A stretch of DNA of 64,000 nucleotides from Micromonospora sp. FIMYZ51 (GTDB lineage Bacteria; Actinomycetota; Actinomycetes; Mycobacteriales; Micromonosporaceae): assembly GCF_038246755.1 (NCBI RefSeq), contig NZ_CP134706.1, positions 5,769,501 to 5,833,500 on the forward strand. Direction: 5' to 3'. The notes under the pieces are model-generated. The model had not been told where the DNA came from and searched no databases. It saw only the letters and a program-made list of their open reading frames with translations. Positions 26,910 through 29,652 of the stretch are shown piece by piece. Within the stretch, counting starts at the first letter, position 1. The number at the start of each line of letters is the position of its first letter. Made by a program: the position numbers and the translations under genes.

Positions 26910-28061
26910 TCAGCGGAAGGGGCCGCGTACCTCGTAGGTGATCCCGCCGGACGACGAGCCGGAGGTGCCGCGCTGTGAGGAGAAGTAGAAGCGGGTGCCG
27001 TCCGGGGAGAAGGCCGGCCCGCAGATCTCCGAGGCGGACTGGCCGGTGATACGCAGGAAGGGTGCCACCACCTCGTCGGGCGTGATGACACAGATCTCCA
27101 TGTCGCCGCCGTCCTCGGCGACGTACAGGTCGCCCGACCGGGCACCGGTGATGTTGTCCACTCCGGTCAGCGGCGCGGTGCCGGAGACGAGTGAGTCGTC
27201 GTACGCCAGGGCGATGCGCTGGTTGACCGCGTCGTACGCCCAGACCCGGTTGTCGCCCTTCGTGGTGAACCAGCAGGTGCCGTCGGCGTACCAGCAGCCC
27301 TCCCCACCGTTGAAGCGCTTGGCGCCGGAGACCTGGCTGCGGGTCTGCGTGCTCGCCGCCGCGGGGTCGGGCACCCGTGCCCAGGTCACCGGGCCGCTGG
27401 TGGCGGTACCGGCGACCAGCACCTCAAGCGTGCCGCTGGCGAGGTTGCCCCAACTCGTCGGGCGGAACCGGTAGAAGCAGCCGTTGCTCTCGTCCTCGGT
27501 CAGGTAGATCACCCGGCGGTCCGAGTCGCAGGCGGCGGCCTCGTGCTTGAACCGGCCCATCGCGTCCCGGCGCACCGCCGACGTGCCGCCCTGCGGGTAC
27601 GTCTCGTAGACGTACCCGCGACTGACCTCCTCGCAGGAGAGCCAGGTCGCCCACGGGGTGGCGCCGCCGGCGCAGTTCTGGTTGGTGCCGGAGAGGATCC
27701 GGTACGCCGAGGCGATGCTGCCGTCGGCGTTGAACCGGATCGCCGACGCCCCGCCGCCCGGGGTGATCTCAGAGTTCGAGACGTAGATCCAACCCGTGCC
27801 GGCGGCGAAGCAGGCACCGCCGTCGGGCGCGTCATGCCAGGTGTACGACGTGCCGGCGACTGCCTGGCGGGACCGGGCCACGACCCGGCTGGTGAAGCCG
27901 GCGGGCAGCCGGATGCCGTTGGCGTCGGCGGCACCGAGCGGCCCGTACGGGCCGGGACCGGGCTGGGCGGGAGCGGCCAGGGCGGCACCGGCCCACAGGC
28001 TGCCGGAGAAGGCGGCGGCGCCACCGGCGACGGTGGCACGCAGCAGAGTACGACGATCCAT
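26910..28061 (-). CDS. Tat-exported PhoX-type (DUF839) protein
   Basis: A 383-residue protein starting MDRRTLLRATVAGGAAAFSG, a twin-arginine signal with RR at residues 3-4 and hydrophobic core to about residue 30. The mature part is a beta-propeller of the DUF839/PhoX family (GTGWIYVSNSEITPGGGASAI, WLSCEEVSRGYVYE, GEGCWYADGTCWFTTKGD, DNITGARSGDLYVAEDGGD). Characterised PhoX proteins are calcium/iron phosphatases folded before Tat export. Whether this member is a phosphatase cannot be told. GGAGGT lies 4 nt before the ATG. Confidence 0.85.
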   Translation of the reverse strand: MDRRTLLRATVAGGAAAFSGSLWAGAALAAPAQPGPGPYGPLGAADANGIRLPAGFTSRVVARSRQAVAGTSYTWHDAPDGGACFAAGTGWIYVSNSEITPGGGASAIRFNADGSIASAYRILSGTNQNCAGGATPWATWLSCEEVSRGYVYETYPQGGTSAVRRDAMGRFKHEAAACDSDRRVIYLTEDESNGCFYRFRPTSWGNLASGTLEVLVAGTATSGPVTWARVPDPAAASTQTRSQVSGAKRFNGGEGCWYADGTCWFTTKGDNRVWAYDAVNQRIALAYDDSLVSGTAPLTGVDNITGARSGDLYVAEDGGDMEICVITPDEVVAPFLRITGQSASEICGPAFSPDGTRFYFSSQRGTSGSSSGGITYEVRGPFR

Positions 28062-28176
28062 CGGGACCTCCGGTCGATGACGTTCGCGAGCGGACCTATC
28101 CGCGACCCTCATCGACGGGGGTGAACACTGAACGAGGCGCTGCCGACCAGGGGGTGATGGCTCGGCCACGGTCGGG

Positions 28177-28182
28177 TACGCT
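28177..28182 (+). promoter_or_regulatory. -10-like hexamer of the DAHP synthase leader
   Basis: TACGCT ends 7 nt before the GTG of the leader peptide, so transcription would start at the GTG and the peptide would be translated from a leaderless end. There is no ribosome site and the -35 element is weak. Confidence 0.45.
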
Positions 28183-28189
28183 TACCGCC

Positions 28190-28249
28190 GTGACACGGTC
28201 GTATCGATGGTTTAGGCAGCCGGCTCGCAGGCCGGTGACCTCACCATGA
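28190..28249 (+). CDS. Leader peptide with Tyr, Trp and Phe codons (attenuation of DAHP synthase)
   Basis: A 19-codon ORF from GTG to TGA reads MTRSYRWFRQPARRPVTSP. All three aromatic residues occur within four codons (Tyr-Arg-Trp-Phe). It is followed by complementary segments and a terminator and then by the first enzyme of aromatic amino acid synthesis. Ribosome stalling at these codons when aromatic tRNAs are uncharged would favour an antiterminator. The mechanism is known for trp leaders in actinobacteria; here it is inferred from the layout. Confidence 0.7.
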   Translation: MTRSYRWFRQPARRPVTSP

Positions 28250-28324
28250 TCTGACGTCACCGTTTTCGAGCCGGCCGGGCAGGAGCTTTCGTTCCTGCCC
28301 TTTCGCGTACGAGCAGCCGGCTCG
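28220..28324 (+). promoter_or_regulatory. Predicted attenuator: competing pairings around a terminator
   Basis: CGAGCCGG (28267-28274) can pair with either of two identical CCGGCTCG copies: one inside the leader coding region (28220-28227) and one beyond the terminator (28317-28324). The 8-bp terminator stem GGGCAGGA/TCCTGCCC (28277-28300) followed by TTT lies between. A further GGTGAC/GTCACC hairpin (28234-28261) covers the leader stop codon. Pairing with the upstream or downstream copy could switch the structure next to the terminator. Confidence 0.6.
28277..28303 (+). terminator. Intrinsic terminator in the DAHP synthase leader
   Basis: Perfect 8-bp stem GGGCAGGA/TCCTGCCC with an 8-nt loop and a short T run, 58 bp before the coding region rather than after a gene, which fits an attenuator. 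Confidence 0.75.
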
Positions 28325-28360
28325 ACCCGGGCACCGGCCCCGGGAACGGTCGGCGAAAGG

Positions 28361-29473
28361 ATGCCCACCGTGACGACCCCGGACAATCACCGGGTCATCG
28401 ACCAGCGGATCGACCGTGTCGTGCCGCTGACCACCCCGGCGCTGCTGCACCACGAGCTTCCTCTGGACGACCACCTGACCTCGGCCGTGTTGGCCGGCCG
28501 ACGGGCCGTCGGCCGGGTACTCGACCGACAGGACGACCGGCTGCTGGTGGTGGTCGGACCCTGTTCGGTCCACGACCCGGCCGCGGCCCTGGACTACGCC
28601 CACCGGCTCCGCGAGGCGGCCGAGCGGGTCGCCGACGACCTGCTTGTGGTGATGCGGGTCTACTTCGAGAAGCCGCGCTCCACGGTGGGTTGGAAGGGCC
28701 TGATCAACGATCCCGCGCTGGACGGCTCCGGTGACGTCAACACCGGGCTACGCAAGGCCCGCGCGCTGCTGCTCGACGTGCTGCGCCTCGGCCTGCCGGT
28801 GGGCTGCGAGTTCCTCGACCCGATCACTCCGCAGTACATCGCCGACACCGTGGCATGGGGTGCGATCGGGGCGCGTACGGTCGAGAGCCAGGTGCACCGC
28901 CAGCTCGCCTCCGGCCTGTCCATGCCGATCGGCATGAAGAACCGCCCCGACGGCAGCATCGCCACGGCGGTGGACGCGATCCGCGCGGCCGGCGTACCGC
29001 ATGTCTTCCCCGGCATCGACGTCTCCGGCACGCCAGCGATCATGCACACCCGGGGCAACGCCGACGGTCACCTGGTGTTGCGCGGTGGTGGCGGCCGGCC
29101 GAACTACGACGCGGCCTCGGTGGCGGGCGCGCTGGACCTGCTGCGCGCGGCGGGCCTGCCGGAACGGCTGGTGGTGGACGCCAGCCACGCCAACAGCGGC
29201 AAGGACCACCGCAACCAGCCCGCGGTGGCCGCCGACGTGGCGGGGCAGATCGCTGCCGGGCAGCGGGGCATCGTCGGCATCATGCTGGAGAGCTTCCTCG
29301 AAGCTGGCCGCCAGGACCTCGACCCCACCCGCGAGCTGACCTACGGCCAGTCCATCACCGACGCCTGCATCGGCTGGGACACCACCGACGAGGTGCTCAC
29401 CCACCTCGCCACCGCCGTCCGTGCCCGCCGAACCACCTCCACCCACCCCACCCCCACCCCCGCCCCGGCCTGA
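28361..29473 (+). CDS. 3-deoxy-7-phosphoheptulonate (DAHP) synthase, class I
   Basis: First step of the shikimate pathway: phosphoenolpyruvate plus erythrose 4-phosphate to DAHP. The 370-residue protein is of the AroF/G/H type, shown by VVGPCSVHDPAAALDYAHRL, MRVYFEKPRSTVGWKGLIND, GARTVESQVHRQLASG, MPIGMKNRPDGS and VVDASHANSGKDH. Metal-ligand Cys (in GPCS) and His (in DASHAN) are present. The ATG has GAAAGG 5 nt upstream. Most actinobacteria use class II DAHP synthases, so this may be a second, feedback- or attenuation-controlled isozyme. The C-terminal Thr/Pro tail is extra. Confidence 0.93.
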   Translation: MPTVTTPDNHRVIDQRIDRVVPLTTPALLHHELPLDDHLTSAVLAGRRAVGRVLDRQDDRLLVVVGPCSVHDPAAALDYAHRLREAAERVADDLLVVMRVYFEKPRSTVGWKGLINDPALDGSGDVNTGLRKARALLLDVLRLGLPVGCEFLDPITPQYIADTVAWGAIGARTVESQVHRQLASGLSMPIGMKNRPDGSIATAVDAIRAAGVPHVFPGIDVSGTPAIMHTRGNADGHLVLRGGGGRPNYDAASVAGALDLLRAAGLPERLVVDASHANSGKDHRNQPAVAADVAGQIAAGQRGIVGIMLESFLEAGRQDLDPTRELTYGQSITDACIGWDTTDEVLTHLATAVRARRTTSTHPTPTPAPA

Positions 29474-29499: not shown

Positions 29500-29550
29500 T
29501 CATGAAGTTACTGCTACGGAAAGCGCCTTCCGGTGGCCATAACTTCATGA
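29500..29550. repeat. Palindromic element, family C (TCATGAAGTTA arms)
   Basis: Perfect 11-bp outer arms TCATGAAGTTA/TAACTTCATGA with a partly paired interior containing GGAA/TTCC. It lies 26 bp past the DAHP synthase stop. Its AT-rich arms stand out from the surroundings and its size resembles family A, but the sequence is unrelated. Confidence 0.75.
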
Positions 29551-29652
29551 TCGACGGGGGCGGAGACGGGGAGACGCGGAAGGGAGTGGGCGGGCAGGGA
29601 GCCGGGGAGGGGGTGGGAGTTTGGTGGGTGGGGGTGCGGGTAGCTGACGGGG

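What the first reader, a model, noticed from the sequence alone, without database searches (positions are those of the whole stretch)
28177..28361. Aromatic amino acid attenuator before a DAHP synthase
A 19-codon leader peptide reads MTRSYRWFRQPARRPVTSP with Tyr, Trp and Phe in four consecutive-to-near codons. It is followed by a perfect-stem terminator (GGGCAGGA/TCCTGCCC plus T run) and by the first enzyme of aromatic synthesis. Two copies of CCGGCTCG flank one CGAGCCGG, giving competing structures. A TACGCT hexamer sits 7 nt before the leader GTG, so the leader may be leaderless, in which case the ribosome would load at the mRNA 5' end. Leaders using all three aromatic amino acids are less familiar than Trp-only ones.
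Basis: partly seen in the sequence, partly recalled or inferred. Interest (0 to 1): 0.72.

Follow-up and report, generated by a model that had tools for sequence, protein, structure and literature searches.

The report
Aromatic-sensing leader before DAHP synthase
A 19-codon mini-gene carrying tyrosine, tryptophan and phenylalanine codons sits before the first gene of aromatic amino acid synthesis and is kept across many actinobacteria, so it is very probably a starvation switch; a relative is already known in Corynebacterium, but this version reads all three amino acids and its switch seems to be built differently.

Summary
The leader (28190-28249) is real by comparison: present before the class I DAHP synthase in 39 of 40 sampled Micromonosporaceae regions, 17 of 17 further loci of that family (looser filter), and 20 of 20 regions of another family. 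A TAnnnT box ends 6-8 nt before the nearest start in 95 of 105 leaders, so it is probably leaderless. Tyr and Phe control codons are mostly UAU and UUU, nearly absent from the enzyme genes. It corresponds to the Corynebacterium glutamicum aroR-aroF attenuator (Phe-Tyr-Phe), but 96 of 105 leaders carry Phe, Tyr and Trp. Segment b can pair with a (upstream) or a' (downstream); both helices and the hairpin between are conserved. In Micromonosporaceae a ribosome stalled on the last control codon is predicted to flip b from a to a'. Whether the output is termination or translation is unresolved.

The parts
28177..28182 (+). -10-like box TACGCT, 7 nt before the leader start (leaderless start predicted)
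   Evidence: TAnnnT ends 6-8 nt before the nearest in-frame start in 95 of 105 leaders
28190..28249 (+). leader peptide ORF, GTG to TGA, MTRSYRWFRQPARRPVTSP
   Evidence: conserved in relatives
28202..28213 (+). control codons TAT CGA TGG TTT (Tyr, Arg, Trp, Phe); U-ending Tyr and Phe codons
28219..28227 (+). segment a, GCCGGCTCG, 5 nt after the Phe codon; pairs with b
   Evidence: pair counts; 5-nt gap in 80 of 105 leaders
28234..28239 (+). 5' arm of inner stem h2 (GGTGAC), whose loop holds the stop codon
   Evidence: 93.8% of cells paired
28256..28261 (+). 3' arm of inner stem h2 (GTCACC)
28267..28275 (+). segment b, CGAGCCGGC; pairs with a or with a'
28277..28300 (+). hairpin T (10-bp stem, UUUC loop), terminator-like
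   Evidence: covariation
28301..28303 (+). short U tract after T (UUU)
28316..28324 (+). segment a', GCCGGCTCG, second copy of a; pairs with b around T
28349..28354 (+). segment 4, GTCGGC, possible partner of a' beside the Shine-Dalgarno (weak support)
   Evidence: (not above shuffles here)
28356..28361 (+). Shine-Dalgarno AAAGGA of the DAHP synthase
28370..29473 (+). class I DAHP synthase (aroFGH type), true start GTG 28370

Best explanation
This is a ribosome-stalling attenuator of the aroR-aroF kind controlling a class I DAHP synthase in Micromonospora. Transcription probably starts at or next to the leader GTG, and a ribosome loads at the 5' end. When charged Tyr-, Trp- or Phe-tRNA is short, the ribosome halts on UAU-CGA-UGG-UUU. 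Halted with UUU in the A site it covers the start of segment a, so b cannot pair with a and pairs with a' instead, around hairpin T. When the leader is read through, a is free, a:b can form and a' is left to other partners near the ribosome-binding site. DAHP synthase is then made more under starvation than under plenty. Shown by sequence and comparison: leader, promoter spacing, control codons and their codon bias, conserved helices. Predicted by folding, in Micromonosporaceae: the a:b to b:a' switch. Inferred: the stalling, the direction of control, and the output (transcription past T, translation, or both).
For: Leader present in 39 of 40 Micromonosporaceae regions, in 17 of 17 further family loci at E <= 2.6e-129 (filter of 3 aromatic residues in 5, or 2 plus a -10 box) and in 20 of 20 f2 regions. 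All three aromatics in 96 of 105 leaders; TAnnnT at 6-8 nt in 95 of 105, and in 92 of the 101 that pass the 3-in-5 filter alone; Shine-Dalgarno-like sequence upstream in 1 of 105. In 18 named loci the leaders use TAT 18/TAC 1 and TTT 19/TTC 7, the enzyme genes (first 1,020 nt of the match) TAT 1/TAC 100 and TTT 0/TTC 103. Among the 49 tRNA places found in this genome there is one tRNA-Phe, one tRNA-Tyr and one tRNA-Trp. Gap from last aromatic codon to a is 5 nt in 80 of 105. a:b beats shuffles (p <= 0.05) in 36 of 43, b:a' in 27 of 43. On 43 distinct rows a:b pairs in 91.0%, b:a' in 89.7%, T in 86.9% of cells, with changes on both sides in 3, 2 and 6 pairs. Masked folding of 44: stall gives a:b 0.01 and b:a' 0.85. 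A relative in a 2.3-Mb genome has leader MSVQRFYFGG, matching the Phe-Tyr-Phe reported for the C. glutamicum aroF leader.
Against: T forms in all states (about 0.96). The Shine-Dalgarno is about equally open in all, and alone it costs slightly more to open when stalled (3.8) than at stop (3.2 kcal/mol). a':4 is no better than shuffles in 40 of 43. Opening the region from segment 4 to the start costs 1.9 kcal/mol less when stalled on average, but 9 of 44 go the other way. By folding only the last codon (Phe) masks a well; stalls at Trp and Tyr do so less or not, although Tyr and Trp are conserved. With other segment bounds and a 12-nt upstream mask the stop state gives a:b only 0.26. In 20 Rhodococcus/Nocardia-type sequences b:a' prevails in every state (0.67-0.85) and a:b stays at 0.13 or less, so the switch is not predicted there. 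The number of pairs changed on both sides is reached by 21 of 500 and 142 of 500 shuffles, and further pair types by 306 and 500 of 500; only cells paired, cells changed on both sides and the covariation score exceed all shuffles. No RNA or expression data for this organism.
Confidence: 0.72

Rival explanations
1. Opposite logic: a:b is the ON structure. A ribosome halted upstream on the aromatic codons leaves a free, so a:b forms. A fast ribosome reaching the stop codon sits between a and b, blocks a:b, and b then pairs with a' (OFF). This is the published logic of the mycobacterial ilvB1 attenuator, where the ribosome at the stop codon blocks the antiterminator.
For: PMC13236596 passages. 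The stop codon lies in the loop between a and b, with short spacers to the ribosome footprint (footprint size recalled). Stalls on Tyr leave a free. In L224 the b:a' hairpin is followed by GGTTTTTTT, a terminator-like run.
Against: In Micromonosporaceae a:b does not overlap T, so a:b would not prevent T. T5 has no upstream partner beyond shuffles. A long U run after a direct b:a' hairpin was noticed in one locus only (L224), read by eye. A review reports that Phe but not Tyr limitation acts in C. glutamicum, which fits masking of a by the last codon better.
Confidence: 0.2
2. T is a plain, unregulated or Rho-assisted partial terminator; the leader peptide is translated but the aromatic codons do not regulate, being kept for RNA-structure reasons.
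For: T is state-independent. The region is constrained at the RNA level.
Against: Different aromatic orders (SYRWF, WYSWF, FYWF, AYFWF, YWRF) keep aromatic identity while nucleotides change. Aromatic-rich ORFs occur before the enzyme in distant bacteria far above control (29 of 57 loci vs 88 of 1980 segments).
Confidence: 0.07
3. A riboswitch or T-box-like RNA that binds a ligand or tRNA directly, without translation of the leader.
For: A strongly folded conserved 5' region.
Against: No Rfam match at gathering score in the window stretch (4 hits, all below it) or in eight related loci. Conservation tracks codons.
Confidence: 0.02

Closest known systems
aroR leader / aroF attenuator of Corynebacterium glutamicum (Neshat et al. 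2014; paper not held, known here through passages of PMC11802643, PMC4046766 and PMC11525245)
   Same: Short leader ORF with aromatic codons before a DAHP synthase gene, attenuation by ribosome stalling. A likely Corynebacterium relative (L234, class I enzyme) shares leader position, a:b complement and a T hairpin with U run (by eye).
   Different: Reported codons are Phe-Tyr-Phe and Phe is the reported effector. Here Tyr, Trp and Phe are all present, and a second exact copy of a (a') lies beyond T.
ilvBNC attenuator of C. glutamicum and ilvB1 attenuator of Mycobacterium tuberculosis (PMC11857589, PMC13236596, passages)
   Same: Actinobacterial leader peptide with control codons and alternative hairpins; the C. 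glutamicum transcript starts one nucleotide from the leader start codon.
   Different: In ilvBNC the antiterminator and terminator share nucleotides; here no segment was found that competes with T.
trp attenuators of Streptomyces and Corynebacterium (PMC1262725, first of three parts read; PMC8079986, passages)
   Same: Leader with control codons and a GC-rich hairpin; S. lividans TrpL1 is reported leaderless.
   Different: Trp codons; conserved complementary triples between antiterminator and terminator, not found here.
uORFC-13-1 motif before aroF in Acholeplasma (PMC8632094, passages)
   Same: Proposed leader with at least one Phe codon and a terminator before DAHP synthase.
   Different: A distant host lineage; a possible RBS; only Phe named.

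Membership tests
aroR-aroF ribosome-mediated attenuator | short ORF with aromatic codons directly upstream of a class I DAHP synthase | tested here: met
aroR-aroF ribosome-mediated attenuator | link by intermediates to the Corynebacterium leader | tested here: met
aroR-aroF ribosome-mediated attenuator | expression responds to Phe (or other aromatic) limitation | not testable with these tools
   no expression data
aroR-aroF ribosome-mediated attenuator | leaderless leader transcript (common in actinobacterial leaders) | tested here: inconclusive
   -10 box spacing in 95 of 105; no mapped 5' end
classical (trp-type) transcription attenuator | control codons in a leader ORF | tested here: met
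classical (trp-type) transcription attenuator | intrinsic terminator between leader and gene | tested here: inconclusive
   10-bp stem, -20.2 kcal/mol, but only UUU after it in this window; relatives have up to UUUUUGUUU
classical (trp-type) transcription attenuator | antiterminator that competes for terminator nucleotides | tested here: not met
   T5 against three upstream segments: p <= 0.05 in 1, 4 and 0 of 43; T3 in 0, 0 and 0 of 43; T about 0.96 in all states
translation attenuator (SD-sequestering leader) | Shine-Dalgarno opens when the ribosome stalls | tested here: inconclusive
   SD unpaired 0.59 (stall) vs 0.57 (stop); SD alone not cheaper to open when stalled, the wider region is
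T-box / known Rfam leader | match to the family model | tested here: not met

The most novel reading that the evidence does not exclude
A widespread class of DAHP-synthase attenuators, in Actinobacteria and also in Proteobacteria, senses all three aromatic amino acids at once. Its Phe and Tyr control codons are held as the wobble-read UUU and UAU although a single tRNA reads both synonyms, so the codon choice is not the isoacceptor choice of selective-charging theory but a way to make stalling more sensitive. In Micromonosporaceae it works by moving segment b from a to a' without any antiterminator.
Probability: 0.35. Interest if true: 0.65.

Novelty: new variant of a known kind. Interest (0 to 1): 0.47.

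Why it matters
DAHP synthase is the entry to all three aromatic amino acids and to many natural products of Micromonospora and its relatives, so a single RNA switch that reads all three would be a natural flux valve and an engineering target. The codon result makes an old question testable: why attenuator control codons avoid the common synonym even where one tRNA reads both.

Tried and rejected
Classical antiterminator: sought by folding nascent transcripts of 9 sequences with ribosome masks and by shuffle tests of both T arms against three upstream segments in 43 sequences; rejected for Micromonosporaceae. A weak GCC(b):GGC(T5) pairing seen is not strictly conserved (L123, L140) and was dropped. 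Shine-Dalgarno sequestration: SD accessibility does not change; only the wider region is cheaper to open when stalled, 32 of 44 higher at stop and 9 lower. Segment 4 as partner of a': 3 of 43 in Micromonosporaceae, 5 of 11 in the Rhodococcus/Nocardia/Amycolatopsis type at p <= 0.05. Leader for the class II enzyme of this genome: none seen in the 330 nt printed upstream; its own start looks leaderless. A second copy of the control-codon/segment-a motif in this genome: no other match below two mismatches; the 15 two-mismatch hits equal the reversed-pattern control (15).

Own errors: read genome-search loci as if oriented and so missed minus-strand hits; one search corrects them. The second control line (genus flanks) was spoiled by the same error and is not used. 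In a notebook entry the SD was one base off; the coordinates here are right. The choice of starts favoured the -10 box; repeat the count with the nearest start. Confidence in the best explanation was lowered from 0.75 to 0.72 on checking, because the folds show no switch in the Rhodococcus/Nocardia type.

Rows left out: A1 holds 44 of the 105 leaders. One search failed to find T in 1 of 44 (L125, stem with a mismatch), so searches have 43; the second set has 20, with L037, L184 and L221 dropped for want of a segment 4 and others left out because the b:a' pattern did not match. Of 22 actinobacterial loci among L001-L080, 18 passed the leader filter; L006, L017 and L036 had none and L007 has a leader-like start whose ORF exceeds the 45-residue limit. 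Of the 28 loci that were read, 10 have leader plus -10 box, 4 an aromatic ORF without it, L178 could not be scored, the other 13 none. Of the 27 loci, the 17 best have it; of the 10 weakest (50-56% identity) 3 could not be scored, 6 have none and L205 has only a TTG ORF without a -10 box. Leaders were selected for at least 3 aromatic residues in 5, or 2 plus a -10 box, so 'all three in 96 of 105' is partly selected. Sequences are related, so p-values overstate independence; over 65 distinct core codon strings the counts are still TAT 65/TAC 6 and TTT 64/TTC 17. One search used 27 of the 29 non-actinobacterial leaders.

Papers: from PMC1262725 I read the first of three parts; from the other papers used, search listings and find-passages only. 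Neshat 2014 and PMC8764745 are not held. That wobble reading is slower, and the ribosome footprint used for the masks, are recalled, not taken from a call.

Full report
What is there. A 19-codon ORF (GTG 28190 to TGA 28249) carries TAT CGA TGG TTT at codons 5-8. A -10-like TACGCT ends 7 nt before the GTG. Downstream lie segment b (28267-28275), a 10-bp hairpin T (28277-28300, -20.2 kcal/mol), and two copies of the complement of b: a (28219-28227) upstream and a' (28316-28324) downstream. The T run is weak, UUU followed by CGCG. The gene is a class I DAHP synthase (TIGR00034 476 bits, PF00793 281 bits), the only match to it in this 7.05-Mb genome; there is also one class II enzyme elsewhere. 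Relatives keep a start at 28370 (GTG, in some ATG) but many lack the ATG at 28361, so the true start is GTG 28370, eight bases after AAAGGA.

Is it real? Yes, by comparison. Regions upstream of the enzyme were read in 40 Micromonosporaceae genomes picked from those listed among 219 with a match of 250 searched; 39 of 40 have the leader (the miss is L143). Among 27 further loci from 23 family genomes, the 17 closest have it by a looser filter; of the 10 most distant copies 3 could not be scored, 6 have none and one has only a TTG ORF without a -10 box. In a second family of the same order, 212 of 251 genomes have the enzyme, and all 20 regions taken, from 18 genera, have the leader. In a phylum-wide draw, 39 of 296 genomes have a match; of 28 new loci read, 10 have a leader with its -10 box. 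In 628 control segments of this window none combines the three aromatics with the -10 box.

Design features. Of 105 leaders, 95 have TAnnnT ending 6, 7 or 8 nt before the nearest in-frame start, 74 of them at 7; other distances occur at most 4 times each; only one has a Shine-Dalgarno-like sequence upstream. In the 101 leaders that pass the 3-in-5 filter without help from the box it is 92. This is the promoter spacing expected of leaderless translation, which is reported for other actinobacterial leader peptides (PMC8079986 passages; PMC11857589 passages). Phe, Tyr and Trp are all present in 96 of 105, in several orders: SYRWF, WYSWF, FYWF, AYFWF, YWRF. The last aromatic codon lies 5 nt before segment a in 80 of 105.

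Codon choice. The leaders use TAT 107/TAC 7 and TTT 114/TTC 30. In 18 named loci the enzyme genes (first 1,020 nt of the match) use TAT 1/TAC 100 and TTT 0/TTC 103, against TAT 18/TAC 1 and TTT 19/TTC 7 in their leaders (Fisher p 3e-19 and 3e-17; related sequences, so overstated). Other leader codons keep G or C in the third position in 72% or more outside the core and 61% within it, against 41 of 262 for Phe and Tyr codons. Among the 49 tRNA places found in this genome there are single genes for Phe (GAA), Tyr (GTA) and Trp (CCA), so the choice is not between isoacceptors, which is how selective-charging theory explains codon choice in E. coli leaders (PMC1183508 passages). Slower wobble reading, or a need for an unpaired A/U-rich stall site, remain possible causes; I cannot tell them apart.

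Structure. On 43 distinct Micromonosporaceae rows, a:b pairs in 91.0% of cells, the inner stem around the stop codon in 93.8%, T in 86.9%. Six T pairs change on both sides, for example G-C to C-G in 14 rows and to A-U in 12. b:a' pairs in 89.7% with two such pairs. Partners slid by 1-3 columns pair in only 30-50%. Cells paired, cells changed on both sides and the covariation score exceed all 500 shuffles in both counts; the number of pairs with such a change is reached by 21 and 142 of 500, and further pair types by 306 and 500 of 500, so the support for b:a' comes from few pairs. By duplex energy a:b exceeds shuffles in 36 of 43 and b:a' in 27 of 43, but a':4 in only 3 of 43. In L118 a, b and a' all carry the matching change. 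In the Rhodococcus/Nocardia/Amycolatopsis type T is missing and b forms a hairpin with a' directly; there a':4 reaches p <= 0.05 in 5 of 11.

Switching. Folding 44 sequences with a ribosome masking the leader up to 10 nt beyond the Phe codon gives a:b 0.01 and b:a' 0.85; with a ribosome at the stop codon a:b 0.50 and b:a' 0.38; without a ribosome 0.41 and 0.46. With other segment bounds and a 12-nt upstream mask at the stop codon a:b is 0.26. The effect depends on which codon stalls: a:b is 0.00 with Phe, 0.15 with Trp and 0.59 with Tyr in the A site (43 sequences). This grading agrees with a review's statement that Phe but not Tyr availability affects aroF transcription in C. glutamicum (PMC11802643), but leaves open why Tyr and Trp are conserved here. 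In 20 Rhodococcus/Nocardia-type sequences b:a' prevails in every state (0.67-0.85) and no such switch is predicted; there the mechanism must differ or the fold is misjudged.

What is not shown. T is predicted at about 0.96 in every state, and no upstream segment competes with it beyond shuffles. So the classical terminator/antiterminator scheme, including the shared trinucleotide of the C. glutamicum ilvBNC attenuator, is not seen here. The Shine-Dalgarno is not freed by stalling either; opening the wider region costs 17.0 kcal/mol when stalled against 18.8 at stop (32 of 44 higher, 9 lower), while the SD alone costs 3.8 against 3.2. The published logic of the mycobacterial ilvB1 attenuator, in which the terminating ribosome blocks the antiterminator, would reverse the roles of a:b and b:a' and is kept as the main rival.

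What it is. It corresponds to the aroR leader of C. glutamicum aroF, reported with Phe-Tyr-Phe (PMC4046766; PMC11802643). L234, from an unnamed 2.3-Mb genome of the second family, has MSVQRFYFGG with the same layout, linking the two. No Rfam family matches at gathering score in the stretches searched. The paper searches made here, as far as listings and passages show, brought up no description of a DAHP-synthase leader peptide outside Corynebacterium, Acholeplasma and a hypothesis for E. coli mentioned in PMC8632094; most subscription papers, including the original aroR paper, are not in the library.

Wider pattern. Among 57 non-actinobacterial loci with enough upstream sequence, mostly Proteobacteria, 29 have an ORF with at least 4 aromatic residues in 7, and 20 have one with all three, against 88 and 37 of 1980 control segments. 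Their Phe codons are also U-ending (TTT 77/TTC 17 in 27 of these leaders, TTT 30/TTC 137 in their enzyme genes; Tyr less so, TAT 37/TAC 32 against 45/127). Aromatic leaders before class I DAHP synthase are therefore common well beyond actinobacteria.

Verdict. The finding is real and biologically sensible: a three-amino-acid version of a known attenuator, with a conserved a/b/a' arrangement of unresolved output.

Noticed in passing
L019, L021, L024, L029, L034, L039-L042, L044, L046, L047, L049-L052, L054, L059, L060, L066-L070, L073-L075, L077, L078 upstream of the match: Aromatic-rich short ORFs (for example MSAKFYFYFFWHLRPLADREG in Caballeronia, MNANRSFYFWYYGFPMPLAEEGVRSP in Xanthomonas) precede class I DAHP synthase in 29 of 57 non-actinobacterial loci, with U-ending Phe codons.
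   Followed up: partly
   Followed up: no
window 29504-29551: Long imperfect palindrome (TCATGAAGTTA..TAACTTCATGA) just after the DAHP synthase stop; one further similar copy (76% identity) in the genome at 6142536-6142593. It probably caused the sub-threshold MIR839 hits.
   Followed up: partly
G000:C1:5313413-5314696 (minus), L206: The class II DAHP synthase shows no aromatic leader, but its likely ATG lies 8 nt after a TACGCT box, so it too may be leaderless.
   Followed up: no
L163, L165, L167 (family f18, unnamed): A different leader type, VKTNFHERFYYRFAP.., with Phe and Tyr only near the core and a TACGCT box 6-7 nt before the start.
   Followed up: no
window 26910-28076, minus strand: PhoX-type alkaline phosphatase gene (PF05787) divergently transcribed from the DAHP synthase.
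   Followed up: no
L185, L190, L191 (Micromonosporaceae): Some leaders lack Trp in the core (RYQRF, GYRRF, DYQRF), so the set of sensed amino acids may shift between genera.
   Followed up: no
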